In this document: positions 1 through 59,268 of the stretch, one piece after another | Position numbering within the stretch: the first letter of the stretch is position 1 | Layout: every line of letters begins with the position of its first letter | From: Anaerococcus obesiensis ph10 | GTDB taxonomy: Bacteria > Bacillota > Clostridia > Tissierellales > Peptoniphilaceae | Length of the DNA: 59,268 nucleotides | Reading direction: 5' to 3' | Assembly: GCF_000311745.1 (NCBI RefSeq) | Contig: NZ_HE978532.1 | Coordinates: 256,930 to 316,197 of the forward strand | Program-made: the position numbers and the translations under genes | Notes under the pieces: model-generated | What the model was told of the DNA's origin: nothing | Seen by the model: only the letters and a program-made list of their open reading frames with translations | The model's database searches: none

Positions 1-226
1 TTACATTTTCAACAATCTTACCTTGTTCTTTCATATCATCTATCATATAGTCAAAGTCATCACTTAGTAGACCTGTTGTGTCATTGTTCATATATAAAAC
101 ATAAACTTCTTCAAGTGCTTTTTCGTCATTGATACCTTTTTCTATGCTCACAAGTGCTTTTATAAAATCCTTGTAGTTATCATTCATCATTTCTTCTAAG
201 TTTTCTCTAATATCTTTGTATTCCAT
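1..226 (-). CDS. Hypothetical ICE protein, C-terminus outside window
   Basis: An open frame starts with ATG at 226 behind a strong GGAGGAAATT ribosome binding site and is still open at base 1, giving at least 75 residues beginning MEYKDIRENLEEMMNDNYK. It is acidic and predicted helical with no recognisable catalytic motif. It lies directly downstream of the giant methylase-helicase gene, where Tn1549-type elements carry small proteins of unknown role. Function not recognised; the reading frame itself is well supported by its ribosome binding site. Confidence 0.7.
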   Translation of the reverse strand, partial: MEYKDIRENLEEMMNDNYKDFIKALVSIEKGINDEKALEEVYVLYMNNDTTGLLSDDFDYMIDDMKEQGKIVENV

Positions 227-241
227 AATTTCCTCCTTGTA

Positions 242-268
242 TTAAATAAGGAGAGCTTTTAGCCCTCC
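242..268 (-). terminator. Weak hairpin after the methylase-helicase gene
   Basis: On the minus strand GGAGGGCT and AGCTCTCC can pair around a three-base loop just after the stop codon at 270. It is followed by only a short T-rich stretch, so termination is likely partial and read-through into the gene at 226 is possible. Confidence 0.4.
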
Positions 269-269
269 T

Positions 270-3200
270 CTATCGTTCTTGTCCTTTTTTACTTTTTTCT
301 TGATTTCTATCTTTTTCTTCTTCTGATTTTAATTTTGATATTTGTCCCAATATTGATGGTTTCTCTTCTCTTGCGTGAAGATTATCCTCTACATCATAAG
401 TTGATTCAAAGTAATCACTATCTTTAAAATCATTGTCATACCTATCTGGTATTCCATCATTGTCAAGATCTTTTGCTAGTGGATCATAGAAGTTTCCATC
501 ATCATCTATTTCTAGTCCTAGTGCTTGTTTTAAATCTTCTTCATCTACTGATACCAGATCATCAAAACTTGACATCTTTATGGCTTCAGTCATATCTTTA
601 AGAGCTTGTGAATTGGATATATCTTCTTCTACAAAAGATTCTGTTCTAATAGCTACATTATCTACATACTGAGTCCATGTTTTTTCTTCCAAATTTACCT
701 CATATTGAATAGAGTGCTTCCCATCAGGTGTTTCTGTATAAGCAAGTCCTATATGGCTTAAATCAGGGTATAGTTTGTCAAAGTCTTCATAACTATTAGA
801 TTCTGAAAACTCGTAGTTAGAATAATCGACTATCGCCCTCTTTAAATTTTCTAATAATGGTGATTGGTTTTCTAATTCTTCGACTTCTCCCATATCTAAA
901 AGTTTATTAATCTCAGCTAGTCTTAGTATCTTATCCCTTAACTCATCTGCTCTTTCAAATGGTTTTGTCAATTCTACTTTGGCATTTTCTAAAGATTCTT
1001 TATAGTTTTGAAGATTTTGATTTAATCTTTCAAGTCTTGCAGGCATTTTTTCAATGGCATTATCAAGCCTTGTTATATTACCATCAGTAGAGTTTGAAAA
1101 CTCTCCGAAGTATTCGGCTTTTCCTAAAAGTTTAAAGGTATGAGTATTAGTCATAAAGTTATATGAAACTTGTAAGTCTAAATTTCTATATTTACCAATA
1201 ACCTTGCTATCATTTATCTTTACCTTTTTTATTTCTTCTAATAGCTTCTCTCCAGCTTCTTTCTTATCTAAAATTTTATTTGTCCCAAGACTGATTGAAG
1301 TGAATTTACTATCTCCTTCTCCTAATTTCTCAACACTTGCAATATCTTCTTTAACTGCTTGTATTTCCATTTCAGTTTTTAAAATACTTTGAGGATAAAT
1401 TTTATTTACCTTATCTTCAAGCTTATATTTATTAGACTTGTAGTTTGATTCCAACATTTTTAGTTTTGTAACTTCGTTATCTAAATCCATCTTTTCTTTA
1501 ATTAAAGGATTACCAGTAGCTAAAGCCTTAATTTCTGAATAAGATAGACTTGCCTCATCAACATCTTCAGCAACACGCACAGGTGTCTTGCTTGTCATTA
1601 TTTGTGATATGAATTTCTGCTTATTCTCTATTGTCTGCCACAAATAAGAATCAAAGGTATTCTCTGTGACATATCTAAAGATATTTACCTTATCATTATC
1701 ATTACCTTGACGAACAATTCTACCACTTCTTTGCTCTAGGTCAGACGGTCTCCATGGGACGTCTAAATCGTGTAAGGCTATTAATTTGTTTTGTACATTT
1801 GTACCTGCTCCCATTTTTTGAGTAGAGCCTAATAATACTCTTACTTCTCCTCTCCTTACTTTGGAGAATAATTCGTCTTTTTGTTTGTCTGTATCTGCTT
1901 CGTGGATAAAGGCTATTTCATCTTTTGGTATTCCCATATTCACTAGCTTATTTCTAATATCATCATAGATATTAAATTCTCCATCTCCTTTTGGTGTGGA
2001 CATATCCGAAAATACTAATTGAGTCGATGAATTTTCTTTTGTCTTATCCCAGATCGAAAAGATATTTTTAACGCATACATTAACCTTTGAATTAGGATCA
2101 TCGGGAAGTAGTGGATTTATTAATCTTTGGTCAAGAGCAAGTTTTTTACCATCATTTGTAATCTTTAACATATTATCTTCTGTTGGCTCGACCTGGTTAT
2201 TTCTAACTGCGTCAGCTCTTTCTGAAATAGCTTCTAATATTTCTTTTTGTTCCTCAGTAGGTTTCGTTTTAATAACTTCAAAATTTGCTTCTGGCACTGG
2301 CAAATTTAACATATCTGAAGTCTTTATATCTGCTACTTCTTTAAACATAGACATCAACTCTGGCAAGTTATAAAACTTTGAAAATCTTGTCTTTTGCCTA
2401 TATCCTGTGCCTTCTGGAGATAATTCAAAGGTGTTTTCTGTTTCTCCAAAAGTAGAAGCCCAAGCGTCAAAATGTTCTAATCCCCTTGCCTTTAAATCAT
2501 CATACTGAAGGTATCTTTGCATGGTATAAAGCTCTGTCATTGAATTTGATATTGGTGTACCAGTAGCAAATACAACGCCCTTTCCATCTGTCATTTCATC
2601 CATATACCTACATTTCATATACATATCCGAAGACTTAAAGGCTTCACTTTGACCGATACCCGCAACATTTCTCATCTTGGTATGCAAGAATAAGTTTTTG
2701 TAATTATGAGCTTCGTCTATAAATAACTTATCTACTCCTAGTTCTTCAAAGGTTATTACATCGTCTTTTTTAAAGTCATCATTTAATTTTTCAAGTCTTA
2801 CCAAGAGTTTCTTCTTTGTCTTTTCCAGTTGTTTTACTGTGAAATTTTCTCCTCTATTTCTTTTGTTCTCATCAATAAAGGAAACTATATCATCTATTTG
2901 GTCTTGTATATGCCTTACCTGGTATTCCTTGGACATTGGTATTTTTTCAAATTGAGAGTGTCCTATGATGACTGCATCATATTCTCCTGTTGCAATCCTA
3001 CCAATAAATCTTTTCCTATTTTTTGGTTGAAAGTCTTTTTTATCTGCCACCATAATATTTGCTGACGGATATAATTGCATAAACTCTCTCCCGATTTGAG
3101 TGATTAGATGGTTAGGAACTACAAATAATGATTTACTTGCAAGTCCTAACTTTTTAGATTCCATAGCAGAAGCTACCATTTCAAAAGTTTTTCCTGCTCC

Positions 3201-17624: not shown

Positions 17625-20048
17625 CTACTTAGCTTCTTCTGGTTTTGTTGTCATCAGCTTATATAGCATGGTGTCTTTAGGGAATTTATCTATAAAGGGA
17701 ACAATGGTATTTCCAAAGAATAATAGTCCCTCACCTGCGTTTGAATTAGTAATATAGTTTAACTGATAAGGCGATATTTTTAATTTCTTAGCAAGAATAT
17801 CCCTATCTCCAGATGCTTGATTTAACATTAGAACAAAGTCTGTATTATCAAAGATATTTTCAATTTCCTGACTTGTTAAAAGGTCTTTTACGTTTTGAGT
17901 TATACCTGTTGGAATACCGCCCCATTTTCTAAATCTTTTCCAGATTTCTACTGAATATGAAGCAGTTTGTGGGTCTTTTAATAAAAGATGGAACTCATCT
18001 ATATAGTATCTAGTAGACTTGCTTCCTCTGTTTAGGGAAACCTTGTTCCAAACTTGGTCTTGAATTACAAGCATACCTATTTTTTTAAGTTGTGTTCCTA
18101 GCTCTTTTATATCAAAGCAAAGCAGTTGCCTATTTAGGTCAACATTTGACCTATTATTAAATACATTAAGACTTCCCTTAACATAAATTTCCATTTCTGT
18201 TGCGAGTTTTCTACCAACTCCCTCTTCTTGGGATAGGAGCATATCGTATAAATCTCCTAATATTGGCATATTTTCTGGTTTTGGGTCTTCAAAATATTTT
18301 TGGTATATCTTTGGTAAGCACCTATCTATAACAGATTTTTCTGCAGCAGTAAGACCAGATCCTCCTACCACGAGTTCAAGCATAGACATTATGAAGTTTG
18401 CCTTATCCTTTAAAGGTGCGTCCCCATCTCCATAGTTCATATTAATATCTAGTGGATTTAGATAGTCCTTTGACTTTGCTGAAACTTTAATAACTTCTCC
18501 ATTAAATTGTTTTACAAGGTTTGAATACTCGCCTTCAGGATCACAAATAATTACATCATCATCTGTGACAAGAATTGCATTTGCCATCTCTCTCTTTGCT
18601 GAGAAAGATTTACCAGAACCTGGTGTACCTAATATTAATCCGTTAGGGTTCTTTAGTTTCTTCCTATCTGCCATTATCAAGTTTTGACTAAGGGCATTTA
18701 ATCCATAGTACAAAGAATTTGCCGAATCAATAAATAGCTCTTCTGTTGTAAAAGGCATAAAAACTGCCGTTGATGATGAGGTTAAAAATCTTTTTATCTC
18801 GACTTGATTAACTCCTAAAGGTAAGGCAGAAACAAGTCCTTGTTCTTGTTGGTGAGATAATCTTTTTACCTGACAATTATGTCTATTTGCAATTGATGAT
18901 ATTTGAGCAATGGTGTTTTCTAATTTTTGATTAGTCCTAGCAAAATTCATCATTACTATGGTAACTACAAAGAGCCTTTCATCTCTATTTTGTAAGTCAG
19001 ATAACATGGACTTAACATCAGCCCCAAAAGTATTTATATCTGATGGAATAATATCCATATCATATCCAGCACGAACTGCTTTCTTTTGTTCTTCAATTTT
19101 CATTCTGTCTAGGTCTGTGTTCTTTCTCTTAATAAGTTTTATAGCTTCTGCTTGTTCAACTACATCTATATGAAAAGCTACATAAATATTGTCATCAATA
19201 TCTAAAAACTCAGATAACATTCTGTCTGATAACTCGCTTGCTAGTATTTGAAAATGACTTACTGCTCCAATGAATTTGCCAAATTTAAAATTATTTGCTG
19301 GTGCAAAATTAAAGATATTGGGAGTTATATGTGATTTTGTAGACTCTTTTTTCTTCAAATCTTTATATGAAAAATCAAAGTTTTTGTCTGGATTTAACAT
19401 ATCGTGAACAAGTCTTAGTATTTCTTCGCCATCAAGGCTCTCAGCTCTTACTCCCATAGATTTAAAGTTGGATAAAATATCTACTTCAAGTCTATTTAGC
19501 TTTGCCCTTGCTTGCTCTAGGTTATCGGCTTCTGTGGTGAAGGTTATATACTTCATCTTTTTAAGTCCGTTATTGCCCTTTGCAAGTTGAAGCTTTAACA
19601 TCTCCCTAAACTCTTTTCTTACATCGTCATAGAAGTCTCCCTTATCAGCAATTTTAATTGCATCTTGTAGGTCTTTATTTCTTCCTAATTGATTTACATA
19701 CGAAAGTTCAATGTGGACACTTGGATCAAAAGAATTTAAAAAGTTGGCAAATTGGTTAAAGATTAAATCTCTATCTTCTTCCAATGCCAACTGGTAATTT
19801 ATATCTTGAAATGAAATTGTCTTTGAATAATTTTTTTCATCTAACTGGCAAATGCCCTCTGGTAACATTCTTATATAGGGAATTGTATCCTCAACAGTAA
19901 ATCTCTTTTTCTCTTTATTTAAAATTACACTTAGAAGACTATTTGTTGGATCTTTCTTTGTTTTTAGCTTTCTTACTTCCTTTCGGTCTTTTTTTAATTG
20001 TTTTTCCCTTAGATTTAAGTCGCTGATTTGCTTTTTTCTTTGCTTCAA
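17625..20048 (-). CDS. virB4: VirB4/TraE-type conjugation ATPase
   Basis: An 807-residue type IV secretion ATPase. Walker A GTPGSGKSFSAKREM is near residue 476 and Walker B with RYYIDEFHLLL near 683. The N-terminal half has the family pattern MLPEGICQLDEKNYSKT. It energises assembly or substrate transport at the inner face of the membrane. Translation likely starts at TTG 20048, inside the end of the prgI gene, because a GGAGG site lies six bases upstream; the overlap with prgI is 110 bases. Length and motif spacing are normal for Tn1549-type elements. Confidence 0.93.
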   Translation of the reverse strand: MKQRKKQISDLNLREKQLKKDRKEVRKLKTKKDPTNSLLSVILNKEKKRFTVEDTIPYIRMLPEGICQLDEKNYSKTISFQDINYQLALEEDRDLIFNQFANFLNSFDPSVHIELSYVNQLGRNKDLQDAIKIADKGDFYDDVRKEFREMLKLQLAKGNNGLKKMKYITFTTEADNLEQARAKLNRLEVDILSNFKSMGVRAESLDGEEILRLVHDMLNPDKNFDFSYKDLKKKESTKSHITPNIFNFAPANNFKFGKFIGAVSHFQILASELSDRMLSEFLDIDDNIYVAFHIDVVEQAEAIKLIKRKNTDLDRMKIEEQKKAVRAGYDMDIIPSDINTFGADVKSMLSDLQNRDERLFVVTIVMMNFARTNQKLENTIAQISSIANRHNCQVKRLSHQQEQGLVSALPLGVNQVEIKRFLTSSSTAVFMPFTTEELFIDSANSLYYGLNALSQNLIMADRKKLKNPNGLILGTPGSGKSFSAKREMANAILVTDDDVIICDPEGEYSNLVKQFNGEVIKVSAKSKDYLNPLDINMNYGDGDAPLKDKANFIMSMLELVVGGSGLTAAEKSVIDRCLPKIYQKYFEDPKPENMPILGDLYDMLLSQEEGVGRKLATEMEIYVKGSLNVFNNRSNVDLNRQLLCFDIKELGTQLKKIGMLVIQDQVWNKVSLNRGSKSTRYYIDEFHLLLKDPQTASYSVEIWKRFRKWGGIPTGITQNVKDLLTSQEIENIFDNTDFVLMLNQASGDRDILAKKLKISPYQLNYITNSNAGEGLLFFGNTIVPFIDKFPKDTMLYKLMTTKPEEAK

Positions 20049-21524: not shown

Positions 21525-21608
21525 CTAATTTAAAACATTTGCAAGTAGTGGAATTAATTTAATACCGATTAGTACAATTCCTCCACCAGCCATAAGCTGC
21601 TTTATGCC
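21525..21608 (-). pseudogene. 3' part of disrupted maff2 gene
   Basis: The minus strand reads GIKQLMAGGGIVLIGIKLIP and then a short hydrophobic end before TAG at 21525. This is the C-terminus of the Maff2 family, a small membrane protein of these ICEs. Its 5' part lies at 40118-40276, on the other side of E1. Joined, they give a normal protein of about 71 residues. Confidence 0.85.
21589..21608. repeat. E1 left junction (attachment site) in maff2
   Basis: GCCATAAGCTGCTTTATGCC here matches GCCATAAATTGCTTAATACC at 40125-40144 at 16 of 20 positions, with the first seven bases identical. The two copies sit exactly where the maff2 gene is interrupted, so they mark the ends of E1. Confidence 0.7.
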
Positions 21609-21611
21609 TAA

Positions 21612-38597: not shown

Positions 38598-38857
38598 ACT
38601 AATTTTTTTATACGCCTTTATCTTATATGAATTTGCATGTATAGATATTTGTATAGGAATGGTTCTTGTCTTGTTTTTAAGATATGCTCACATTCATTAG
38701 ATTGAAGTTTCTTTCGTTTATATTTCACTCTAACCCATCTTCATACAACTGTTCATGGCTTCTATCTATTTCTGATAATTGGTTCTTTTTAAGCTACAGC
38801 CCCTTAAAATAAATAGCCAAGAAGTTGAATTGAACATTACAAGTTATGAATTTTTAG
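38598..38857. other. Intergenic region after araC
   Basis: About 260 bases without a supported gene. No clear terminator hairpin with T-tract was found for araC. Short frames exist but have no ribosome binding site. Confidence 0.4.
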
Positions 38858-39355: not shown

Positions 39356-39781
39356 TTTAGTTCACCTCCTCTCTTGAAGTATAAACCATTTCGTAAATGG
39401 GAGCAATTTTTCTTAGTTGTGTCAACTAAATTCGTATAAATTTTCTTGCTAGTATTAGTGCTATACTTTTTTACAATTTATATAGTTGTTTAAAATCTAT
39501 AATCACAGATGTCTTCTTGTCAATGTAATTATACACATACAGGTCATGTATTAGGAAGTTTTGTAAATTCTCAAATAAATTACTCACAAAACTTTGGATT
39601 CCAATCTAAAAGATATTTACAAAATCATTGACAAGATATAAAAACACCCTATATAAAGATTACAATTCTAAAATTGTAAGTAAGCTATCACAAATTATAC
39701 ATTATTTCAATAAAATTTTAGAAACCTTTATTAAGATTTTCTTTGATCCCTTGTAAATCAAGTGTAAAGAACTATAAGAAT
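39356..39781. other. AT-rich intergenic region in E1
   Basis: No gene seen. A sigma-70-like promoter on the plus strand may exist: TTGACA (39628-39633) and TATATA (39650-39655) with a 16-base spacer, but no gene follows it in that direction, so it may be fortuitous or drive a small RNA. Confidence 0.35.
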
Positions 39782-40000
39782 TTAAATCTCTTTTTCAAAT
39801 TCATCTTCAAAACTAATAATATCATTAGGAGTGCAAGATAGAGCCTTACATATTCTTTCTAAATTCTTAAATGTAATTGGTTTATCTTTGCCCATTTGTG
39901 CCATAACATTTGTTGTAAGTCCTGCCATAGCTATTACATCTGTTTTCTTTAATCCTTTTTTTGCTAATTGTATCCATAATGGTTTATAGTTAAGTGCCAT
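39782..40000 (-). CDS. XRE/Cro-type helix-turn-helix regulator
   Basis: A 72-residue protein with the compact Cro-type fold: LAKKGLKKTDVIAMAGLTTN, QMGKDKPITFKNLERICKAL and CTPNDIISF. It is probably a repressor controlling E1 functions. It has its own promoter at 40036-40064 and lies next to the right end of E1. Confidence 0.88.
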   Translation of the reverse strand: MALNYKPLWIQLAKKGLKKTDVIAMAGLTTNVMAQMGKDKPITFKNLERICKALSCTPNDIISFEDEFEKEI

Positions 40001-40035
40001 AATATCCCTCTTTTTCTCTCTATTAGATTTATTTA

Positions 40036-40064
40036 ATTATAGCATAAATATTGATTTCATTCAA
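40036..40064 (-). promoter_or_regulatory. Promoter of the XRE regulator
   Basis: Minus strand TTGAAT (plus 40059-40064), 17-base spacer, TATAAT (plus 40036-40041) with an extended TG upstream. Its CAATATTTATG-N-TATAATTAAA stretch is shared with the promoter of the second YhcG gene. Confidence 0.75.
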
Positions 40065-40117
40065 TCTTACATTGATTTAGTGATTTGTTTTAGAGAATTT
40101 GTTGTGTTATTCCGTCC

Positions 40118-40276
40118 TTATTTTGCCATAAATTGCTTAATACCTTGAGATTTAGCACCAGGGTTATCATTACCATAACCTTCCATTAAGTTAATAACTC
40201 CCCATGCACCTAAACCTGCACCAATTGCAGTTACAAGTGTCTTTAAAACTCCAACTCCAGCTGTAAAAAATTCCAT
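40118..40276 (-). pseudogene. 5' part of disrupted maff2 gene
   Basis: From ATG 40276 with a GAGGAGG site the frame encodes MEFFTAGVGVLKTLVTAIGA and YGNDNPGAKSQGIKQFMA, the typical Maff2 start, then runs into E1 and stops at 40118. The missing C-terminus is at 21525-21608. Maff2 is a small hydrophobic protein next to the VirB6-like gene in these ICEs, so its disruption may affect transfer. Confidence 0.88.
40125..40144. repeat. E1 right junction (attachment site) in maff2
   Basis: Imperfect copy (16 of 20 bases) of the left junction at 21589-21608, at the point where maff2 coding sequence breaks off. Confidence 0.7.
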
Positions 40277-40277: not shown

Positions 40278-40589
40278 TTATTCCTCCTCGTTTTCTTTCT
40301 TATTTTCTATTTTATTTAGTGATTTAACTATAAAATTCTTGTAGACCTTATCTCCTTTTTTATTTTCTTTGAAATATCCAAAGACATGGATTAGATCTCC
40401 TTTTTCAAATTCTTTTACAATTTCTACCTTTTCTCCATATACTGAGCAATTTGTATATTCTTTGCCCTTGCCATAATTTTTTACAAGAGCAAAATTTGCT
40501 ACTTGAACACTTTCTCCATCTTTTTCAAATTCTGAAAATTCAGCTTCCTTAACTAAATTTGCATTAATATTTATCATTTCTCTATCCAT
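40278..40589 (-). CDS. Single-strand DNA-binding-like protein of the ICE
   Basis: A 103-residue protein with an OB-fold pattern: ESVQVANFALVKNYGKGKEY, CSVYGEKVEIVKEFEKGDLI and HVFGYFKENKKGDKVY, then a charged end with no typical acidic SSB tail motif beyond EEE. It likely protects transferred or replicating single strands. It is one base upstream of maff2 on the minus strand and follows a leader with a short open frame and a hairpin. Confidence 0.75.
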   Translation of the reverse strand: MDREMININANLVKEAEFSEFEKDGESVQVANFALVKNYGKGKEYTNCSVYGEKVEIVKEFEKGDLIHVFGYFKENKKGDKVYKNFIVKSLNKIENKKENEEE

Positions 40590-40780: not shown

Positions 40781-41056
40781 CTAATCTTCTAAAATCGATA
40801 CTTCAAGATCTATCGCTTTAAATTTAACATTTATTCCTACTTCTTCTTTTACTGTTTTTTCAAATAGATCAGCTATATCATATGGGGACATATCATATAT
40901 ATCTTCATACCATTCATTGTTTTCATCGTACATTGTCTCACATATTGCTTCAATATAATTTTTCTTATCCCTTGTGAGTTCCGTATCACTTTCTAGAATA
41001 AACTGCTCACCATTTATATTTAATATAATTAAAGATGATTTTCTATTTTCACACAT
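40781..41056 (-). CDS. Hypothetical ICE protein between virD4 and ssb
   Basis: A 91-residue acidic protein with a GGAG site before ATG 41056, beginning MCENRKSSLIILNINGEQFI and containing two aspartate-rich stretches. No family recognised. It is in the transfer operon between virD4 and the SSB-like gene. Confidence 0.65.
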   Translation of the reverse strand: MCENRKSSLIILNINGEQFILESDTELTRDKKNYIEAICETMYDENNEWYEDIYDMSPYDIADLFEKTVKEEVGINVKFKAIDLEVSILED

Positions 41057-41074: not shown

Positions 41075-41878
41075 TCAAATGTTTAACCTATTTATTTTAT
41101 AACTTGATTTTAACTTTACCTTATCTCTATTTGTTAGATACTCTTCCACATCAAACAAGTTCTTCTTATCATAATCTTCTAACAACTTGTAATTCTTATG
41201 CTTTGTAATATCAAATTTATCAGACAAGAAAGGTCTTACTCCTCTCAGCTGGTATATACACTTTCCACCATCCATTACAGTTATTTCATCTTGGCTCATA
41301 AGTTCCTTTCCAGTCTTTTGGTAATTTAGACCAAAAGATTTTTGATTTGATCTTGTTTCTGATGTGTTATATAGGTCTATGGTTTCTTTTCCTAAGGTTT
41401 CTGATAATTCTTTTACTGTTGTTTTTTCTTTTCCTCCTAAAAAGAGTGTGGAGTCACAGTTACCAACTATTGTATCTGCATGGTCTTTGTAAATTGCTTT
41501 TAATTGAGATTGTGCTTGCAGTATTATGCTTGCTGATATTTCTCTTGAACGAATTGTTGCTATTAATTTTTCAAATTTAGGAATTAAGCCAATATTTGCA
41601 AACTCATCAAGTAGACACCTAACATGAACTGGAAGTCTTCCACCATACACATCATCTGCCTTATCACATAGTAAATTAAATAATTGGGAATACATTATTG
41701 AGACTACAAAGTTAAAAGTATCATCAGTATCTGATATTATTACAAATAAAGCAGTTTTTCTATCTCCAATTTTATCGAGTTCTAATTCATCTTCGCTCAT
41801 TAGTTCTCTAAGCTCTCTTATATCAAAAGGTGCAAGTCTTGCTCCACAAGATATTAGAATTGACTTGGCAGTTTTTCC
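41075..41878 (-). pseudogene. virD4: C-terminal part of disrupted virD4 coupling protein gene
   Basis: The frame from the E2 junction (41878) reads GKTAKSILISCGARLAPFDI and then continues through RELMSEDELEL to the stop at 41075. It holds Walker B in HVRCLLDEFANIGLIPK and the conserved SASIILQAQSQLKAIYKDHA and CDSTLFLGGKEKTT of VirD4/TraG. VirD4 feeds the relaxase-DNA complex into the channel. The preceding part lies at 57889-58332. An ATG at 41800 could start a 241-residue fragment, but without Walker A it could not work as an ATPase. Confidence 0.88.
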
Positions 41879-41901
41879 TGTAACAACTTGTCAAGGACTT
41901 T

Positions 41902-42087
41902 CTAATCATTTTTATGAGGTTTTTTATCTTTTTCTCGCTCCATTTCTCTAAGCATTATCCTTTTCAATTTATCTTGCATAGTTTCAGTCGCATTTTCATT
42001 AAAGTGAACAACAACCTCATAAGTTGCTTTACCAATTTTCTTTATAGTTTTTATCCCTGTATTCTGTTCATTTTTATTTTCGTGCAT
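41902..42087 (-). CDS. tnpW: TnpW-like small protein of E2
   Basis: A 61-residue protein with KTIKKIGKATYEVVVHFNEN and a downstream DKLKRIMLREME, the pattern of TnpW from Tn4451-type elements. It lies 23 bases from the left end of E2 and has a GGAGGG site. Its function is unknown; TnpW genes typically mark one end of such elements. A diverged copy opens E3 at 58368-58532. Confidence 0.75.
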   Translation of the reverse strand: MHENKNEQNTGIKTIKKIGKATYEVVVHFNENATETMQDKLKRIMLREMEREKDKKPHKND

Positions 42088-48346: not shown

Positions 48347-48931
48347 TTAAATCACTCCTGCTTTTTCAAAATGCTTTTTGAGTATCTTTGTTGCAACGAA
48401 TGCTCCTATGCAAGCAAGAACAAATGTTATCAAGGCAAAGCCTACTGCCCATGAAACTTTGAAATAAGATAATGCTTCATTTATTTGTGCTTCACTCATT
48501 TTCCATTTTGATGCTCTTTCCACAAAAGAAGCTGTTCCGAATAAAATCACAGGAATTACTGTCCCTAAAAAATCCGCTAATGCAAATATCCCCTATCCAA
48601 TAATCATTCGTCCCTTGCTCTCATAATTTCCTATAATCAAATCACATATAATTCCACCGATTACAGCAAAGACTGCATGAGGCAAATGTCCTCCTGACAA
48701 TGCAATTAAACCAAGAAGCGTTCCTGATATTGTAAATACGCCCTTCTTTTTAACTTTCAAAGCCATAAGGATATAAACGGTAGCAGCTACCATAAAGCTA
48801 ACTCCTGAAGCAATAAATCCTCCAATCACTGTTGTTGCCATAGCAAATGCAACCGCCATGTATATGACAATTCCAATTGCATTAAAGATTCCGATTGTAA
48901 TAAAATCACGACCATTTAATTTGTTTTTCAT
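48347..48931 (-). pseudogene. MptD-family ECF S component of E2, interrupted by TAG
   Basis: One continuous frame encodes LNGRDFITIGIFNAIGIVIY at the start and TKILKKHFEKAGVI at the end, matching the E1 S component. An in-frame TAG at 48593-48595 (after GRMIIG and before GIFALADFLG) cuts it into 112 residues plus the last third. No base is lost or gained. Unless the stop is read through or is a sequencing error, the E2 importer lacks a complete S component and might borrow that of E1. Confidence 0.8.
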
Positions 48932-48941
48932 AAAAGTCCTC

Positions 48942-49646
48942 CTAATAAATTTTCTGTATTACTATCACAAGAGCAATCATCAAAGCTCCTAATAGTCCAA
49001 TCAACAAATCCGTTGTTCTAAACCTCAATTTTGTTAATGTAACCCTGTTCTCATCACTATCAAGTCCTCTAATGAGTGCTGAAGCTGACAGTTCATCTGA
49101 AATCTTAATCATTCTCATTAAAAGCGGAACAAGCGTATATTCAATATATTTAATTGGATGTAGCAAGGGAAAAAATCTACTTGTTACGATTCCTCGAATC
49201 TTCATATTCTCTTTTAATGCCTTGAGTTCTATTTTTATAGTTGGTACAAACCTAAGCAAAACACTAAAAGGTATACCAATGCTTCTTGGTACTTTCATTC
49301 TATTTAATGCTTCAAGCATTTCACTTACACTTGTAGTCTTTGTTATATATCCACCAAACATAGCAATTAAGGTCATCCTTGATGCAAAGTAAATAAACAT
49401 ATATATTGCAAATACGATACTTGCTTCACAAAACTTTCCAAGCCATAACTCTATGCAGTATAAAATCACAAAAAACAAAATAAAGCGTAATGCTCTTTTC
49501 CACATACTGCTGTATACATACAGAAAAAAGGCAAAGAGAATCAGTCCGAAAAGTAGAATTGTATCGCTTATAAAAAAGCTCGTAAATCCAACAATTGGAA
49601 GTAGAGTAAGTTTTATTCTCGGATCGACTGTTTTTCTATCCATCAA
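48942..49646 (-). CDS. EcfT membrane component, E2
   Basis: A 234-residue protein with DRKTVDPRIKLTLLPIVGF at the start, membrane helices, and the coupling helices PFSVLLRFVPTIKIELKAL and ASALIRGLDSDENR. It probably starts at TTG 49646, eight bases after GGAGG, directly after the ATPase gene stop. It scaffolds the ECF importer together with the ATPase encoded upstream. Confidence 0.9.
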   Translation of the reverse strand: MMDRKTVDPRIKLTLLPIVGFTSFFISDTILLFGLILFAFFLYVYSSMWKRALRFILFFVILYCIELWLGKFCEASIVFAIYMFIYFASRMTLIAMFGGYITKTTSVSEMLEALNRMKVPRSIGIPFSVLLRFVPTIKIELKALKENMKIRGIVTSRFFPLLHPIKYIEYTLVPLLMRMIKISDELSASALIRGLDSDENRVTLTKLRFRTTDLLIGLLGALMIALVIVIQKIY

Positions 49647-49647
49647 G

Positions 49648-51153
49648 TTATCTACCTCCTCTCATCTTGTCCAATATGAGAATTTTATTACTTTCACTCA
49701 TATTCAAAACACTTTCTATTTTTCCATCTCCCATTACCCAGAGCTTACTCACTGTGTTCGCTAAAAACTCAAAATCATGACTTATCACCAAAACTGTTGT
49801 TCCATTTTTTAATTGTTCTTCAATTAATTTTGCCACTGAAAGCATTGAGTCTTTATCACAACCTGATGTTGGTTCATCATAGATAAAAACTTTTGCCTGT
49901 TTCATCATTCCACAAGCTATTGTGAGTCTTTGTTTTTCTCCTCTTGATAAAGCAAACGGATGCTTATCAATGTATTTATCTAAGCCAAGTACATTCAAAA
50001 TAGACTTTGCCTTTTGAGTATTTTCTTTTTTATCTTTACTTGAAATACCAAGCAGCATTTCATCAAGTACACTTTCCGAAAACAACTGATAGTCTGAATC
50101 TTGAAAGACAAAATATGACATATCCATTAAATCTTTATGATTAAGCGAATTATCTTTCCCCGTCCATATCTTCCCCTCTTTTATCTTCTCAAGTCCTGAA
50201 ATCACTCTTGCAAAGGTAGTTTTTCCGGTACCATTTAAGCCGATAAGACCAATGGCTATTCCGCACTCCATATTGAAATCAAGATGATTTAAGATGTATT
50301 GATTTTGCTTATTTCCAACCTTAGTTGCACTTGGGTAACAAAATTTCAAGCCTTTCCCACTGATACTTTCATCATTTAATTGATATAAATCTTTCTTCTC
50401 ACTTATCCTGTATTCTTTTAATTCAAGAGTTCTTAGTCCATTATCATCCCAAAACTTCCCTTCAAGATGGATAACTTCTTCCCGACTCAAGTCCTGTGCA
50501 ATCTCTCCATCTTTAACCAAAAGAAAACGGTCAAATAAAGATTTTACATAGTACAAACGATGTTCAATTAGAACAACAGTTGTTCCCTTTTTCTTTAATT
50601 TTTCCAAAATTAAAAATAGGTCAAATGTTGCTTTCATATCCAAATTTGCTGAAGGCTCATCTAAAATTAAAACTTTCGGATTCATTGCATAGATGCTTGC
50701 AATAGCTATCTTTTGTTTCTGCCCGCTTGATAATTCAAAAACAGATTTTCCTTTCAGTTCCTCAATATCCAGCTCTGCATATACTTCTTCTACTCTCTGT
50801 TTGATTTCATATCTTGATTTGCAGATAGTTTGAAGCCCAAAAGCTATTTCTTCATCTGTCGTTGTCGTGAAAAATTGACTTCTTGGATCTTGAAATACAG
50901 TACCTACAATACGCCCTATTTCATGAAGCGATAATTTGCTTATATCTTTTCCGGACGCAAAGGCTTCCCCTTTCATTTTGCCTTTGTAATAATGTGGAAT
51001 AAGACCATTCATCACACTTCCAAGAGTACTTTTACCACTTCCACTTTTCCCTGAAATTAAAACAAATTCACCTTTTCTAATTTCAAGATTGACATTTTTT
51101 AAAGCAGTTCGTCCATCTTCCCATTCATAATAAACATTTTTTAGCAAAATCAT
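49648..51153 (-). CDS. ECF transporter ATPase with two nucleotide-binding domains, E2
   Basis: A 501-residue tandem ATPase. Domain 1 has ISGKSGSGKSTLG and a slightly altered signature LSSGQKQKIAIA. Domain 2 has IGLNGTGKTTFARV and LSRGEKQRLTIA, so both signatures deviate from LSGGQ. It is a diverged homologue of the E1 protein and powers the EcfT/S-component importer. A GAGG site precedes the ATG, and the gene starts two bases after the ABC gene stop. Confidence 0.92.
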   Translation of the reverse strand: MILLKNVYYEWEDGRTALKNVNLEIRKGEFVLISGKSGSGKSTLGSVMNGLIPHYYKGKMKGEAFASGKDISKLSLHEIGRIVGTVFQDPRSQFFTTTTDEEIAFGLQTICKSRYEIKQRVEEVYAELDIEELKGKSVFELSSGQKQKIAIASIYAMNPKVLILDEPSANLDMKATFDLFLILEKLKKKGTTVVLIEHRLYYVKSLFDRFLLVKDGEIAQDLSREEVIHLEGKFWDDNGLRTLELKEYRISEKKDLYQLNDESISGKGLKFCYPSATKVGNKQNQYILNHLDFNMECGIAIGLIGLNGTGKTTFARVISGLEKIKEGKIWTGKDNSLNHKDLMDMSYFVFQDSDYQLFSESVLDEMLLGISSKDKKENTQKAKSILNVLGLDKYIDKHPFALSRGEKQRLTIACGMMKQAKVFIYDEPTSGCDKDSMLSVAKLIEEQLKNGTTVLVISHDFEFLANTVSKLWVMGDGKIESVLNMSESNKILILDKMRGGR

Positions 51154-51155
51154 GG

Positions 51156-52865
51156 TTATACCTCATACTGAGCTTTCCATAATTTTGTGTAGTAACCATT
51201 TTTTGCAAGAAGTTCACCATGCTTTCCTTTTTCAAGTAAATTTCCTTTTTGAAATACGAGAATTTGGTCAGCTTTTTGAATTGTTTTTAAATGATGAGCC
51301 ACTACAAGTACAGTTCTATTCTTTGCAAGTTCTGTAATAGCATCCTGTATCAAAGATTCATTTACAGGATCAACATTACTTGTCATTTCATCAAGAATTA
51401 AAATCGGTGCATCTTTTAGAAAAGCTCTTGCAATAGATATTCTTTGTCTTTGTCCACCTGATAAAATTCCTCCATTTTCGCCAATATCAGTTTCATAACC
51501 TTTTGGTAAACTCATAATGAAATCATGTATTCTTGCTTTCTTTGCAGCTTCAATGATTTCCTCTTTTGTAGCTCCTTTTTTACCTACTCTGATATTTTCT
51601 TCAATCGTGTTATCAAACAATTGAACATTCTGCATGACAATGCTAATACGGTCTAAAAGCTCATCATAAGGAATATCCCTTATATCAATTCCTCCGAGTG
51701 TAATTTTTCCTTTATGCACATCATAAAATCTTAGAAGTAAGTTGGTTATAGTGGTCTTTCCACTACCTGATTCTCCAACTAAGGCTGTCATTGTTTTTTC
51801 AGCAATAGAAAAGCTCAATTTTTCCATTTTAAATTCATCTTTTTCATAGGAAAATCCAATGTTATCAAAAGCTATATCATTATCTTTCGGAACAATTCCA
51901 TTCACTTTATCCGGGATTACATCTGCATATAAAATTCTTGAAAGTCTTTCGTAACTATCTACCGCCGAAACATAGTTCATATAGTGTTGTTCCATAGAAG
52001 CGAACGGCTTATAAAACTCTTTTGAAATTACCGCAAAGATAATAAAATTAAGCACATCGAGATTTCCCTTTATAACAAGTATTGCTCCTGCAATTAAAAG
52101 AACTAAATATCCAATATCCAGTAAAAAACCAAATATAGATAACTGTTTTGCCTTGAATCTTGAAGCTGCTTTACTTGTTTCTCCGAACTTTTTCGTTTTG
52201 TTCATAAGCTCATTATCTAAGCTCTTATTGTTTGAAAAACTCTTTAGTACAGGTATTCCTCTAACATATTCAACAAATAAGCTAACCATATCAAGAAGTG
52301 CTGAGTTGTTCTGATTTTCTATTTTTTCAGATTGCTTAATTGTCAGATATAGAAAGATAAGTGCAATCGGAACAGATACAGCCATAATAATAGCAAGTTT
52401 GAAATCAATACTTGCAAGACCAACAAATACGACTGCACCTATCAAAAAATCACCAAACATTCTTGACCACATGTGTCCTACAACAAGGGACATATTATCA
52501 ACATCTTTGTGTAAAATTGTATTGATCTCGCCCAGTCTTTCGTTGGTATAAAATCCTAAGCTGAATTTTTTTAATTTGATAATCATGCGTTCTCTGATTT
52601 GCTGAACAATATCAAAACCTGCACTATGCTTTTTCATATCTGCAACCATATTACAAATACCTTTGAACACTACAAGTAATCCAATCGCAATAAAATATTT
52701 ATATAGACTTGCTAAGCTCGTTCCATCGAATATTTGGAACAGTATAGAAAATACGATCACAATCATAGCTATGGAGCTTAGTCCATAAAGGGCAAAGAAT
52801 ACACTCGATATAATCAAATCTCTCTTGCCAGTTTTTGTAAGTAGTTTTAACATTTCTCTAAACAT
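51156..52865 (-). CDS. ABC half-transporter, YbtQ-like, E2
   Basis: A 569-residue fused half-transporter with membrane helices in residues 15-290, Walker A GESGSGKTTITN, signature LSGGQRQRISIAR and ILDEMTSNVDPVNE, in which the usual alanine after E is Met. It overlaps the preceding half-transporter by 8 bases, so the two form a heterodimer. Homologous in type to the E1 pair but clearly diverged. Confidence 0.87.
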   Translation of the reverse strand: MFREMLKLLTKTGKRDLIISSVFFALYGLSSIAMIVIVFSILFQIFDGTSLASLYKYFIAIGLLVVFKGICNMVADMKKHSAGFDIVQQIRERMIIKLKKFSLGFYTNERLGEINTILHKDVDNMSLVVGHMWSRMFGDFLIGAVVFVGLASIDFKLAIIMAVSVPIALIFLYLTIKQSEKIENQNNSALLDMVSLFVEYVRGIPVLKSFSNNKSLDNELMNKTKKFGETSKAASRFKAKQLSIFGFLLDIGYLVLLIAGAILVIKGNLDVLNFIIFAVISKEFYKPFASMEQHYMNYVSAVDSYERLSRILYADVIPDKVNGIVPKDNDIAFDNIGFSYEKDEFKMEKLSFSIAEKTMTALVGESGSGKTTITNLLLRFYDVHKGKITLGGIDIRDIPYDELLDRISIVMQNVQLFDNTIEENIRVGKKGATKEEIIEAAKKARIHDFIMSLPKGYETDIGENGGILSGGQRQRISIARAFLKDAPILILDEMTSNVDPVNESLIQDAITELAKNRTVLVVAHHLKTIQKADQILVFQKGNLLEKGKHGELLAKNGYYTKLWKAQYEV

Positions 52866-54597
52866 TTTCTGTTACCACCTCTTTCAAATTCCATCTATCT
52901 ACCTTGTTCTGTGCTTCAACCATATCCTTATAAAAATCACATCTTTTCATCAGCTCTTCATGGCTTCCTGCATCAAGAACAACACCCTTATCCATAACAA
53001 TAATTTGGTCTGAATCTCTAATCGTATTTAGATGATGAGCAATTGTAATGATGGTTTTATCCTTGCTTAAATCGTCAATTGCTTCGCCGATAAGTCTTTC
53101 ATTTTCACTATCAACAGCCGCCATTGCTTCATCTAATATTAAAATCGGTGCATTTTTCAGTATCATTCTTGCTATAGAGATTCTTTGTTTTTCTCCACCG
53201 GATAACTTAACTCCCATTTCACCTACTCGTGTTTCATATCCATTTGGCAATGCTGAAATAAAATCATGGCATCTTGCTTTTTTAGCAGCTTCTATGACTT
53301 CTTCTTTTGTTGCATTTAGTTTTCCAATTGCTATATTTTCAAAAATACTTAAGTCAAAAAGGATAACTTCTTGTTGCACACTACCAATCAGCATTGAGAT
53401 ATTTTCTTGACTATATTCTTTTATATCTTTTCCATTTATCAGTATTTGTCCTTCATCTGCATCCCAAAATCCCATAAGCAAATTAGATACCGTACTCTTT
53501 CCACAACCGCTTGCTCCTACAAAGGCGTTCAAACTATTTTTCTTAAAATTCAAATTGATATTTTTAAGCTCAAAGCTATCTTTTCCGTATGCAAAATTCA
53601 CATCTTTAAATTCTATGTTTCCAAATTCTAAACCTTGTTCTGTCTTTTTGTTTGGAAGTGGAACTGTTAATACTTTCCCTATCGCCTTTAACGCTTCCTT
53701 AAACACAATAGAAAAATGTTGCAATGTAGCTGTCTTACTTATAGAAGCAGTAAAAGCAGACGATAAAATAATGGCAAGGATAAAATTAGGCGTTGTAATA
53801 TTTCCATGATAAAGAAATATGCTTCCCAAAATCATGACAATAACCACTCCAATTTCCATAAATATGTCAATGAGTCCCATTGGAATTGTAACCATCCCCA
53901 TGCTCTTTTTAACCCAGTAAATATATTCTCTTGCCGTTTTTAATGTTCTTTCACTAATTTCCTCTTCTTTAGCAAAAGCCTTAATCACAGAAATATTTTT
54001 TACATATTCCATTAGCTCTTCTCTCATTCTGTTTTCATGATTGAAGTAAATCGCAAAGTTTTTATCCATTGTTTTCTGTGAAAGAACTTTTACCAAATAC
54101 ATGAGTGGAACTCCGGCAATCATCCCAAGAGCAAGACGCCAATCCACAAAAATCATAGCTACAAAAATAATGGTAGGCAGAAGTGTAACTGCCATTATTT
54201 CAGGAAGACCATGGGCAAGGTATACTTCCACTTGCTCTACATCATGTTGAACAATGTTGGTAAGCTCTCCTGTATTATGTTCTTTAAAGAATCCCAAACT
54301 TAGTTTTTTCAGATGACCGATAATATCTAACCTAAGTTCTGTTAATTTTTCGTATGCTTTCTCATGGGCAACCTTTGTTGCAAAATAATAAAACACTCCT
54401 TTTAATACAAACGATATAAAGATTCCCAAGAATATATACTTTAAATTACCTTCGTTAATATTGTTTGTGATTAAAGAACTAATCAAATATACAAGTAAGA
54501 TTTGTGGTATCAAATCAAATACTATTTTTAAAGCAAGAAGTGAATTGGATAAACTATTTTTCCCAATCACTTTTTTCCTTAATTCTTTTTCCGGCAT
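52858..54597 (-). CDS. ABC half-transporter, YbtP-like, E2
   Basis: A 579-residue fused half-transporter from ATG 54597, seven bases after GGAGAG. Membrane helices occupy residues 20-310. Walker A is GASGCGKSTVSN, the signature KLSGGEKQRISIAR, and Walker B is followed by ILDEAMAAVDSENE. First transporter gene of the E2 operon, behind an operator palindrome at 54624-54647 shared with the tetR promoter. Confidence 0.87.
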   Translation of the reverse strand: MPEKELRKKVIGKNSLSNSLLALKIVFDLIPQILLVYLISSLITNNINEGNLKYIFLGIFISFVLKGVFYYFATKVAHEKAYEKLTELRLDIIGHLKKLSLGFFKEHNTGELTNIVQHDVEQVEVYLAHGLPEIMAVTLLPTIIFVAMIFVDWRLALGMIAGVPLMYLVKVLSQKTMDKNFAIYFNHENRMREELMEYVKNISVIKAFAKEEEISERTLKTAREYIYWVKKSMGMVTIPMGLIDIFMEIGVVIVMILGSIFLYHGNITTPNFILAIILSSAFTASISKTATLQHFSIVFKEALKAIGKVLTVPLPNKKTEQGLEFGNIEFKDVNFAYGKDSFELKNINLNFKKNSLNAFVGASGCGKSTVSNLLMGFWDADEGQILINGKDIKEYSQENISMLIGSVQQEVILFDLSIFENIAIGKLNATKEEVIEAAKKARCHDFISALPNGYETRVGEMGVKLSGGEKQRISIARMILKNAPILILDEAMAAVDSENERLIGEAIDDLSKDKTIITIAHHLNTIRDSDQIIVMDKGVVLDAGSHEELMKRCDFYKDMVEAQNKVDRWNLKEVVTENV

Positions 54598-54623
54598 GAA
54601 CAACTCTCCTTTCAAAATTGAAT

Positions 54624-55954: not shown

Positions 55955-57816
<1,862 letters not shown>

Positions 57817-58367: not shown

Positions 58368-58532
58368 TTATATCTTCTCTGTTTCTCTCTTGATTAGCTT
58401 TAGTATTTTATCCTTGTATGTTTCCCCTGTACCTTGCTTAAAATGTAGGTTTACAGTATATTTTGTCTTTCCAATATCCATGATCAACTGTTTATGTGGT
58501 GGTACTTGTATTTTTCTTTTTTCTTCTTCCAT
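58368..58532 (-). CDS. tnpW: TnpW-like small protein of E3
   Basis: A 54-residue frame from ATG 58532 with AGGAGG five bases upstream, containing DIGKTKYTVNLHFKQGTGE and KDKILKLIKRE, the TnpW pattern. It is diverged from the E2 copy. It stands at the element end next to the virD4 junction. Confidence 0.75.
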   Translation of the reverse strand: MEEEKRKIQVPPHKQLIMDIGKTKYTVNLHFKQGTGETYKDKILKLIKRETEKI

Positions 58533-58590: not shown

Positions 58591-58640
58591 CCTTCGTGTT
58601 AGCTTTTATTGACTTGTTAGTTTAGCAAGCTAAAAATATC

Positions 58641-58934
58641 CTACCTGCAATACTCTTTTATCTTATCTGCATATTCAGTCGAAAGATTCTTTGAATAAAT
58701 TTTTTCATTTTTTGAATTTCTGACTTCTTTCCAAAGAATAGAGGCTACTTTTAATTTGTTCGAATATTTGCAACTATTTTTGTCTGCACAGAAATCCTTT
58801 AAAAATTGGTTCCATTGACAAACTGAATTATCATACTTCGCATAATTTGATTTTCCATAATAAACTTTTAGCATATCTTGAATTGTAAAACTCAAATCAT
58901 TTTCTCTTTTTACTTTTCTCCAAGCAGTAGCCAT
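58641..58934 (-). CDS. Unrecognised protein, possibly a 3' fragment
   Basis: A 97-residue frame from ATG 58934 (MATAWRKVKRENDLSFTIQD) with no good ribosome binding site. The same frame continues upstream as SPFKFTAD and further to a stop near 59032, so this may be the remnant of a longer gene. It contains SVCQWNQFLKDFCADKNSC with several cysteines. No family recognised. Confidence 0.45.
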   Translation of the reverse strand: MATAWRKVKRENDLSFTIQDMLKVYYGKSNYAKYDNSVCQWNQFLKDFCADKNSCKYSNKLKVASILWKEVRNSKNEKIYSKNLSTEYADKIKEYCR

Positions 58935-58959
58935 ATCAGCAGTAAATTTAAATGGCGAA

Positions 58960-59114
58960 ACATCTGTTAAAATTGAGAAATACTCTCTGAAATGTGTGTT
59001 AAAGGAGAACCCGCATTCAAGTAATGGTAATAGTTTCTACTTGTTTCTTTTCATTTTTTATTGATGACTTTTTAATCAAACCAACCTTAATATCATATTC
59101 CTGTTCGTCAAGTC
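58960..59114. other. Region upstream of the E3 unknown gene
   Basis: No complete gene or clear promoter seen. The upstream extension of the gene at 58641-58934 ends here at an in-frame stop. Confidence 0.3.
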
Positions 59115-59268
59115 ATGTCGTTCCTCTCTTCCACATATCTCCATGTGAAATTTCAGGATCGCTATGAAATTCGTCGACAACTACGCTATTTAGGAACTTT
59201 CACCCCAGTATTGGAACTTGCCCGTTATACAAAAAATTTTGATACTAATAATTTAGTTAATATCAAAA
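59115..59268 (+). CDS. Possible start of an unknown plus-strand gene at the window edge
   Basis: ATG 59115 opens a frame that stays open to the edge: MSFLSSTYLHVKFQDRYEIR followed by QLRYLGTFTPVLELARY. No strong ribosome binding site precedes it. The stretch looks less AT-rich than its surroundings and may come from another source. Not recognised. Confidence 0.25.
   Translation, partial: MSFLSSTYLHVKFQDRYEIRRQLRYLGTFTPVLELARYTKNFDTNNLVNIK

What the first reader, a model, noticed from the sequence alone, without database searches (positions are those of the whole stretch)
1..59268. One ICE carrying three nested mobilizable elements, two of them in the same virD4 gene
The maff2 gene is split between 40118-40276 and 21525-21608. 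The virD4 gene is split into 41075-41878, 57889-58332 and a missing N-terminal part. Removing E1, E2 and E3 restores a compact Tn1549-type transfer operon. E1 and E2 lack channel genes and would need a helper ICE, yet their insertions destroy virD4 and maff2 of this one. The stack may therefore immobilise its host ICE while still able to leave with another helper.
Basis: partly seen in the sequence, partly recalled or inferred. Interest (0 to 1): 0.75.

Follow-up and report, generated by a model that had tools for sequence, protein, structure and literature searches.

The report
Three mobile elements docked in ICE
A large bacterial mobile element has two of its DNA-transfer genes cut into pieces by three smaller mobile elements, each sitting at the exact spot that its own integrase family occupies in other species; the smaller ones likely come and go, so the stack is likely a reversible parking arrangement, of a kind already described, rather than a dead end.

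Summary
maff2 and virD4 are whole in close relatives (virD4 site 333 is empty in 13 of 24 scorable near-type ICEs, the window's included) and are interrupted here by three separate serine-integrase IMEs: E1 (18.5 kb, maff2), E2 (16 kb) and E3 (8.2 kb, both in virD4). The missing virD4 N-terminus lies 7.2 kb past the window end; E3 carries an Lsa-family ABC-F resistance gene. Of 48 junctions examined, 44 have an integrase beside them and all 44 are of the clade that belongs to that site; a fourth clade uses a third virD4 site. Other species have triple stacks, one with three IMEs in one virD4. Occupancy changes at least 9 (maff2) and 8 (virD4-333) times on the backbone tree, and scorable pieces show no stops and dN/dS 0.02-0.10: docking looks recent or reversible. 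The genome also holds an uninterrupted ICE of this kind, a candidate helper. ICEs with one to three IMEs in maff2, traG/virD4 or snf2 are published (Tn6103; streptococcal IMEs): a new member of a known kind.

The parts
17625..20048 (-). VirB4 ATPase gene of the host ICE
   Evidence: PF19044; 99% identical over 807 aa to L010
19939..20349 (-). PrgI-family channel gene
   Evidence: PF12666
20651..21514 (-). VirB6/TrbL-like channel gene
   Evidence: PF19478; 98% to L010
21528..21608 (-). maff2, 3' piece (residues 45-71)
   Evidence: 96% to intact Maff2 of L010; PF12750 on the intact protein
21606..40124 (-). E1: integrative mobilizable element in maff2
   Evidence: homology to L010 breaks at both ends, shared AAGCA; same insertion point in other genomes
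21612..23258 (-). E1 large serine integrase (int1)
   Evidence: PF00239, PF07508, PF13408, PF14287
28068..29711 (-). E1 MobA/MobL relaxase
   Evidence: PF03389 E 4e-85
24425..26907 (-). E1: two DUF1016/YhcG nuclease genes (24425-25504, 25876-26907)
   Evidence: PF06250, PF17761
30678..37067 (-). E1 cargo: two ABC exporter genes and an ECF-type transporter set
   Evidence: PF00664/PF00005, PF02361, PF09605
40124..40276 (-). maff2, 5' piece (residues 1-51)
   Evidence: 98% to L010 Maff2
40278..40589 (-). Ssb-like ICE gene between maff2 and virD4 (name is by look; no family match)
   Evidence: 98% to L010:7996-8307; no Pfam match here, no NCBIfam match for the L010 copy
40781..41056 (-). 91-aa ICE gene between maff2 and virD4
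   Evidence: counterpart at L010:7530-7805 in the same order
41075..41884 (-). virD4, C-terminal piece (residues about 336-603)
   Evidence: PF12696, PF02534; 97% to L010
41885..57888 (-). E2: integrative mobilizable element in virD4, core at residues 336-337 (site label D333)
   Evidence: shared CAGGA against L010; same upstream junction in 19 further ICE stretches (16 genomes), same downstream junction in 15
41902..42087 (-). E2 tnpW-like small gene next to the end
   Evidence: PF14202
45433..47073 (-). E2 MobA/MobL relaxase
   Evidence: PF03389; 51% to that of E1
48593..54615 (-). E2 cargo: ECF-type transporter set and two ABC exporter genes
   Evidence: PF09605, PF02361, PF00005; NCBIfam listing
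56092..57792 (-). E2 large serine integrase (int2)
   Evidence: PF00239, PF07508, PF13408, PF14287
57889..58326 (-). virD4, middle piece (residues 192-337)
   Evidence: 99% to L010
58331..59268 (-). E3: element in virD4, core at residues 193-194 (site label D192); continues 7.2 kb past the window (integrase, MobA/MobL relaxase, Lsa-family ABC-F gene there)
58368..58532 (-). E3 tnpW-like small gene next to the end
   Evidence: PF14202

Best explanation
One Tn1549-type conjugative element (ICE) has its maff2 and virD4 genes interrupted by three separate mobilizable elements, each lodged at the fixed site of its own serine-integrase family, and these elements likely use the ICE's conserved transfer-gene codons as a reversible dock. 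Shown by sequence: E1 sits in maff2 at codons 47-48, E2 in virD4 at 336-337, E3 in virD4 at 193-194 (labels M45, D333, D192 below); wherever an integrase was found beside a junction its clade matched the site; the same sites are empty in many near-type ICEs and filled in others, alone, in pairs or in threes. Inferred: the integrase crosses over within the short shared core, so that leaving is as precise as arriving; while docked, the ICE has no whole VirD4 and is predicted not to transfer by its own channel; the IMEs, which carry relaxases but no channel, would be moved by another ICE of the same kind, such as the uninterrupted one on contig C1 of the same genome, or by the host ICE after excision. 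Docking in a transfer gene spares the bacterial cell, and conserved codons offer a site in most related ICEs that the IME meets.
For: Piece-by-piece match to an uninterrupted relative with shared cores; same insertion points with near-identical element ends across genomes; 44 of 48 junctions have an integrase within 400 bases and 44 of those 44 are of the clade of that site: int1-maff2 15, int2-D333 18, int3-D192 7, int4-D115 4 (two of the int1 rows are only 49% identical; the window's own three are among the 44). Near-type ICEs (33 of the 80 fetched loci plus the window), filled/empty/not scorable: maff2 11/21/2, D333 11/13/10, D192 1/22/11, D115 2/21/11 (one cell corrected). Fewest changes of state on the backbone tree: 9 for maff2 (32 rows), 8 for D333 (24 rows). 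int1 99% identical in L051 and L053 although their VirB4 is only 79% identical: the IME moves apart from the ICE. Integrases and relaxases open in all three elements. Interrupted virD4 pieces: 0 rows with stops in 11, 10 and 9 rows scored; dN/dS 0.071, 0.017, 0.104 against 0.048, 0.021, 0.083 uninterrupted. Uninterrupted ICE with relaxase and serine integrase on C1.
Against: No excision, circular form or transfer was observed; nothing here can show it. dN/dS among pieces mostly records time before insertion, and rows without an ungapped match were dropped, so it cannot separate reversible from merely recent. A helper in the same cell is not general: of 20 genomes behind filled loci, 7 have a full-length VirD4 match (590 residues or more) elsewhere (one of G001's two has a stop), 1 has it in the docked ICE itself (G020), 12 have none. 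The own genome holds a decayed virD4 C-terminal remnant on C1 with stops, whose upstream edge resembles the E2 end, and G014 lacks the virD4 C-terminus, the Ssb-like gene and the maff2 5' piece between an E2-like and an E1-like end: some docked ICEs do decay. In S. suis an intact-looking IME in snf2 did not excise under the conditions tested, though its ICE transferred (PMC7168690, passages).
Confidence: 0.7

Rival explanations
1. One reading: the stack permanently immobilises the host ICE; the IMEs leave only with another helper and the ICE is on its way to decay.
For: virD4 is in three pieces and maff2 in two; a decayed virD4 remnant with stops and an E2-like edge exists in the same genome; G014 has lost the genes between two docked elements; Tn6103, with three such inserts, excised but its transfer was not detected (PMC3158075, passages).
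Against: VirB4 is about as constrained in ICEs with a filled site as in others (dN/dS 0.026-0.030 against 0.022-0.023); state changes at least 8-9 times on the tree; ICESp2905 with two IMEs transferred, in part without one of them (PMC5704250 section 3.5).
Confidence: 0.25
2. Trans-complementation: the host ICE stays mobile while docked because the co-resident C1 ICE supplies VirD4 and Maff2.
For: C1 ICE has uninterrupted VirD4 (83% identical) and Maff2 (87%).
Against: No test of cross-recognition; VirD4 residues 9-112 are only 54% identical between the two types (row ownC1); 12 of 20 genomes behind filled loci show no full-length VirD4 match, so it cannot be general.
Confidence: 0.1
3. Assembly artefact: near-identical elements made the assembler join unrelated ICE pieces.
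For: E1 and E2 share 300-base blocks 95-97% identical; misjoins cannot be ruled out in two other genomes.
Against: Both insertion points of each element recur in independent assemblies; the virD4 and maff2 pieces here are all of one ICE lineage, 95-100% to L010 per segment; the C1 ICE of the genome has its sites empty.
Confidence: 0.03

Closest known systems
Tn6103 of Clostridioides difficile R20291 with Tn6104, Tn6105 and Tn6106 (PMC3158075)
   Same: A CTn5-like conjugative element with three inserted, probably mobilizable elements, two in one gene (ORF 1743), one in ORF 1776; large serine recombinases; Tn6104 has a mobA/mobL gene and an ABC transporter; the review PMC5704250 puts Tn6104 in traG/VirD4.
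   Different: Different host group, ICE and cargo; here the third insert is in maff2, and residue-level sites were not compared with Tn6104-6106 (not tested).
Streptococcal IMEs IME_Sco1050_traG_site1/site2, IME_ScoC232_maff2_site1, IMESp2907 (PMC5357655, PMC5704250)
   Same: Serine-integrase IMEs site-specific for traG (two sites), maff2 (two sites) or snf2 of Tn5252-superfamily ICEs, one to three per ICE.
   Different: Here three virD4 sites are seen across relatives, each with its own integrase clade; whether two of them equal the streptococcal traG sites was not tested; the snf2-like gene of this ICE is one open frame.
IMEs in Tn1549-related ICEs of Streptococcus suis (PMC7168690)
   Same: Same ICE type; inserts in a membrane-protein gene, an SNF2-like gene and the coupling-protein gene.
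   Different: No triple stack is mentioned in the passages I read.
IME_Rho_tet (PMC12904643)
   Same: IME often found in MAFF2-encoding genes (116 of 256 recreated sites) and absent from a near-identical ICE.
   Different: Carries tet(W)/tet(32); not compared by sequence here.

Membership tests
Integrative and mobilizable element (E1, E2, E3) | own integrase | tested here: met
   large serine recombinase, open frame, in each
Integrative and mobilizable element (E1, E2, E3) | own relaxase | tested here: met
   MobA/MobL PF03389 in each
Integrative and mobilizable element (E1, E2, E3) | no mating-channel genes | tested here: met
   no VirB4, VirB6 or VirD4 match inside E1-E3 of the window; other channel proteins were sought only through the Pfam scans of the larger frames; a withheld part of E3 was not seen
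Integrative and mobilizable element (E1, E2, E3) | defined ends, empty site in relatives | tested here: met
Integrative and mobilizable element (E1, E2, E3) | excision and mobilisation by a helper | not testable with these tools
   needs cells or reads
Tn1549-type ICE (host) | Tn916-like tyrosine integrase | tested here: met
   L089:8610-9845, PF00589 and PF02920
Tn1549-type ICE (host) | MobP relaxase | tested here: met
   L149:396-1736, PF03432; below the cut-off of the NCBIfam TraI/MobA(P) model, 42.5 against 250 bits
Tn1549-type ICE (host) | VirD4, Maff2, VirB6, PrgI, VirB4, NlpC/P60 transfer set in this order | tested here: met
   (VirD4 and Maff2 in pieces)
Tn1549-type ICE (host) | direct sequence comparison with Tn1549 | not tested
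   Tn1549 itself was not fetched; the type name is recalled and as used in PMC7168690
Tn4451/Tn6104-like mobilizable transposon | TnpX-like large serine recombinase, TnpW, 2-bp core | tested here: inconclusive
   TnpW in E2 and E3; rows G015 and G005b narrow the E2 core to GG, but empty copies of those two were not seen; TnpX was not compared

The most novel reading that the evidence does not exclude
The docking sites are exchange points: because co-resident ICEs carry the same IME at the same codon, recombination through the IME or its attachment sites swaps the transfer-gene segments between sites, so that IMEs cut virD4-maff2 into interchangeable cassettes and drive the mosaic evolution of ICEs. 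Changes of ICE lineage fell at 5 of 31 filled sites, 1 of 191 empty sites and 0 of 355 control boundaries; in Urinicoccus two ICEs appear to have swapped just the virD4 middle segment.
Probability: 0.3. Interest if true: 0.7.

Novelty: new member of a known kind. Interest (0 to 1): 0.45.

Why it matters
It gives a well-sampled natural system for a question that the literature leaves open: whether IMEs inside ICE transfer genes are harmless hitchhikers that leave when conjugation starts, or pirates that kill the ICE. One ICE type, with VirB4 about 99% identical in many anaerobe genera, exists with every site empty and with up to three filled, by four integrase clades with fixed sites; E3 carries a resistance gene. 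It also shows three docking sites in virD4 and stacks of three IMEs as a recurrent state.

Tried and rejected
Assembly artefact: judged unlikely for the window (recurrent insertion points). 'Nested in each other': rejected, the elements are side by side. Amino-acid identity thresholds as a test of lineage switches were not usable, because segments differ in conservation; redone on nucleotides. That result is suggestive only: the 5 switches come from 3 ICE copies in 2 genomes, boundaries within one ICE are not independent, and in both genomes two ICE copies share exact matches of 1073 and 1235 bases, so misjoins are not excluded. The one switch at an empty site is L046, at D333. L049 (92-97% before D333, 71-85% after) looks like a further case but fell between thresholds and was not counted. 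Rfam on the window: 0 matches; tRNA scan: 0. The automatic table called D115 of L073 empty; the map shows it filled and I corrected it by hand; other cells of that table were not all checked by eye. 'Empty' at the maff2 site includes loci with a group II intron a few residues upstream. Rows dropped: sites beyond the fetched flank were not scored; 15 of the 80 loci were extended with longer stretches, chosen because a site was filled, so counts of multiple filling are not a random sample; L083 (G020) was left unscored at the virD4 sites although one search shows a full-length VirD4 upstream of its int1. In one search rows without an ungapped match over the segment were dropped (virD4 340-600: 0 of 11 filled, 1 of 13 empty; 200-330: 1 and 0; 10-110: 2 and 0; VirB4 by maff2 state 3 of 11 and 2 of 21, by D333 state 4 of 11 and 1 of 13). 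Organism: not named by any tool; by kinship of the ICE probably an anaerobe near Peptoniphilus/Anaerococcus (inference).
Full report
What is there. The window is G000:C2:256930-316197 of a 2.04-Mb genome in 5 contigs. On the minus strand it holds the transfer set of a Tn1549-type ICE; going up the coordinates: NlpC/P60 protein, VirB4, PrgI, VirB6, maff2, an Ssb-like gene, a 91-aa gene, virD4. In the uninterrupted relative L010 (Anaerosphaera aminiphila DSM 21120) virD4 to virB4 takes 6.7 kb, with a 603-aa VirD4 and a 71-aa Maff2 (PF02534 and PF12750). Here the same genes are spread over 49.4 kb: Maff2 residues 1-51 and 45-71, and VirD4 residues 2-194, 192-337 and 333-603 (the small overlaps are chance similarity of the element ends). 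The VirD4 N-terminus lies past the window end (ORF L007:7209-7787). The finding is confirmed and completed.

The three elements. E1 is 18.5 kb, E2 16.0 kb, E3 8.2 kb. Each has an open large serine integrase and a MobA/MobL relaxase and no VirB4, VirB6 or VirD4 match. int2 and int3 are 45% identical, int1 32-34% to both; the relaxases are 37-51% identical. E2 and E3 end in the same GTCCTTGACAA next to a TnpW-like gene. Cargo: E1 and E2 each carry an ECF-type transporter set with two ABC exporters, E1 also two DUF1016/YhcG nucleases; E3 carries an ABC-F protein of the Lsa family (NF000167, 804 bits against a cut-off of 750), a drug-resistance family. Compared with L010, the two ends of each element share CAGGA (E2), AAAGG (E3) and AAGCA (E1; after two differing bases TTATGGC is shared too).

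Sites and integrases. Comparing the pieces apart on these loci and on longer stretches shows four sites, each with its own integrase clade. Labels follow the start of the downstream match: M45 in maff2 (int1; core at codons 47-48), D333 (int2; 336-337), D192 (int3; 193-194) and D115 (int4, not in this ICE; 118-119) in virD4. Of 48 junctions examined, 44 have an integrase within 400 bases, at a nearly constant distance in each clade (7, 96-97, 54-55 and 60-61 bases; 127-128 for two int1 relatives of 49% identity), and none is of the wrong clade. The 4 without are two contig ends (L021, G007) and two broken integrases (L029, G005a). Insertion points agree to the base and the element ends are near-identical, with scattered differences. 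The targets are conserved codons: GIK/QLMAGG in Maff2, DPKG/T and AAG/KTAKS in VirD4.

How often. In 34 near-type ICEs (33 of the 80 loci, VirB4 at least 90% identical, plus the window) the sites are filled/empty/not scorable: M45 11/21/2, D333 11/13/10, D192 1/22/11, D115 2/21/11. In the 47 others: 5/38/4, 5/29/13, 1/31/15, 3/27/17. With all four sites scorable, 3 of 23 near-type ICEs have three filled: the window, Peptoniphilus grossensis ph5 and Anaerococcus vaginalis PH9, the last two at D115, D333 and M45; of 30 others, 1 (Peptoniphilus asaccharolyticus). A contig of Urinicoccus massiliensis FC2 has three IMEs in one virD4 (D115, D192, D333). So the triple stack is recurrent, though the longer stretches were fetched for filled loci and the rates are not a random sample.

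How it likely works. The M45 and D333 states need at least 9 (32 rows) and 8 (24 rows) changes on a tree of the VirB6-VirB4 DNA (quick method, 12 of 31 inner branches open), against 11 filled rows each; the window's sister row, L009, has all four IME sites empty, though a group II intron is in its maff2. int1 is 99% identical in L051 and L053, whose VirB4 is only 79% identical to the near type: the elements move between ICE lineages. Pieces of interrupted virD4 carry no stops (0 of 11, 10 and 9 rows scored) and have dN/dS of 0.071, 0.017 and 0.104, against 0.048, 0.021 and 0.083 in uninterrupted copies. I infer docking that is recent or reversible; dN/dS alone cannot tell which, since it mostly records earlier history. 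The IMEs need a channel: contig C1 of the same genome has an uninterrupted set, VirD4 83%, Maff2 87%, VirB6 83%, VirB4 79% identical, with a PF03432 relaxase, a serine recombinase and a methyltransferase gene (PF05958) that looks like rumA: a candidate helper. This is not general: of the 20 genomes behind filled loci, 7 have a full-length VirD4 match elsewhere (G001, G003, G006, G009, G010, G014, G017), G020 has it in the docked ICE itself, and 12 have none.

Against reversibility. The genome also has a decayed virD4 C-terminus on C1 (residues 334-601, stops inside), whose upstream edge resembles the E2 end by eye (the pattern with up to 3 mismatches did not match). In G014 the genes between an E2-like 5' part (97-99.8% identical) and an E1-like 3' end (78%) are missing, as if two docked elements had fused. 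E1 and E2 of the window share blocks 77-89% identical, with 300-base stretches at 95-97%, so the same could happen here.

Literature. Seen as passages or sections: Tn6103 with Tn6104-6106 (PMC3158075: two in ORF 1743, one in ORF 1776; circular Tn6103 and Tn6104 seen, transfer of Tn6103 not detected); IMEs in traG, maff2 and snf2 of Tn5252-superfamily ICEs, one to three per ICE, with the proposal that induction of conjugation triggers excision (PMC5704250 section 3.5; PMC5357655 section 'IMEs within ICEs'); Tn1549-type hosts in S. suis, and one hosted IME not excising while its Tn5252-type ICE transferred (PMC7168690); IME_Rho_tet in MAFF2 genes (PMC12904643); Tn1806 nested in an ICE's snf2, with excision and transfer of some nested copies (PMC12942858, abstract and outline). 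I saw no mention of a third virD4 site in the listings and passages; that is not a full reading.

Lineage switches. Scoring twelve segments by nucleotide identity to L010, a change of lineage fell at 5 of 31 filled sites, 1 of 191 empty sites (L046) and 0 of 355 control boundaries. The five come from L022 (both ends of the D333-M45 segment), Urinicoccus ICE a (D192) and ICE b (D192 and D333). Misassembly is not excluded (exact shared stretches of 1073 and 1235 bases). I keep this as the novel case, not as a result.

Verdict. Anatomy confirmed; interpretation partly supported; a new, well-documented member of a known kind.

Noticed in passing
L007:3970-5448 (E3, past the window end): Lsa-family ABC-F ribosomal protection gene next to the integrase of E3, above the NCBIfam cut-off.
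   Followed up: partly
L009:5745-8423, L012:5740-8423, L013:5741-8423: A group II intron sits in maff2 at about residue 39, a few codons from the E1 site, in relatives (Rfam RF02004 and RF00029); L081, L085, L043 and L074 show a similar gap (not run against Rfam).
   Followed up: partly
L114-L115 (G014, Peptoniphilus asaccharolyticus): E2-like 5' part and E1-like 3' end with the virD4 C-terminus, Ssb-like gene and maff2 5' piece missing between them: looks like a fusion of two docked IMEs with an integrase at each end.
   Followed up: partly
L116-L117 (G012, Urinicoccus massiliensis FC2, contig start): Three IMEs in one virD4 gene, at sites D115, D192 and D333.
   Followed up: partly
L093:9444-11203 (own contig C1): Decayed ICE remnant: virD4 residues 334-601 with stops, beginning at the E2 site and preceded by an edge that resembles the E2 end.
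   Followed up: partly
L089:7609-9845 and L007:11477-13143: The host ICE lies between a thiM-like gene and thiW/thiH-like genes, with a Tn916-like tyrosine integrase at the thiM end; roughly 100 kb in all, ends not mapped.
   Followed up: partly
window 10672-12292: AbiEii-type nucleotidyltransferase toxin gene with a DUF6088 partner on the ICE, a likely toxin-antitoxin or phage-defence pair.
   Followed up: no
L006:12966-13718: By eye, a second, partial copy of the ICE relaxase gene, about 12 kb from the full copy.
   Followed up: no
L014 and L060, about 6.8-8.4 kb: Integrases about 43% identical to int2 stand near the maff2-virB6 region but at no site scored here; perhaps another maff2 site.
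   Followed up: no
window 30678-37067, 48593-54615 and L089:11200-17372: ECF-transporter plus paired ABC-exporter cassettes on two IMEs, and by look of the frames a third on the ICE (no family search); in E2 the Trep_Strep gene covers only part of its profile and may be split.
   Followed up: no
G016, G017, G018 stretches (L112, L110, L109, L124, L125): Short VirD4-like fragments (40-47 residues, 88-91% identical) lie inside or beside docked elements in other genomes.
   Followed up: no
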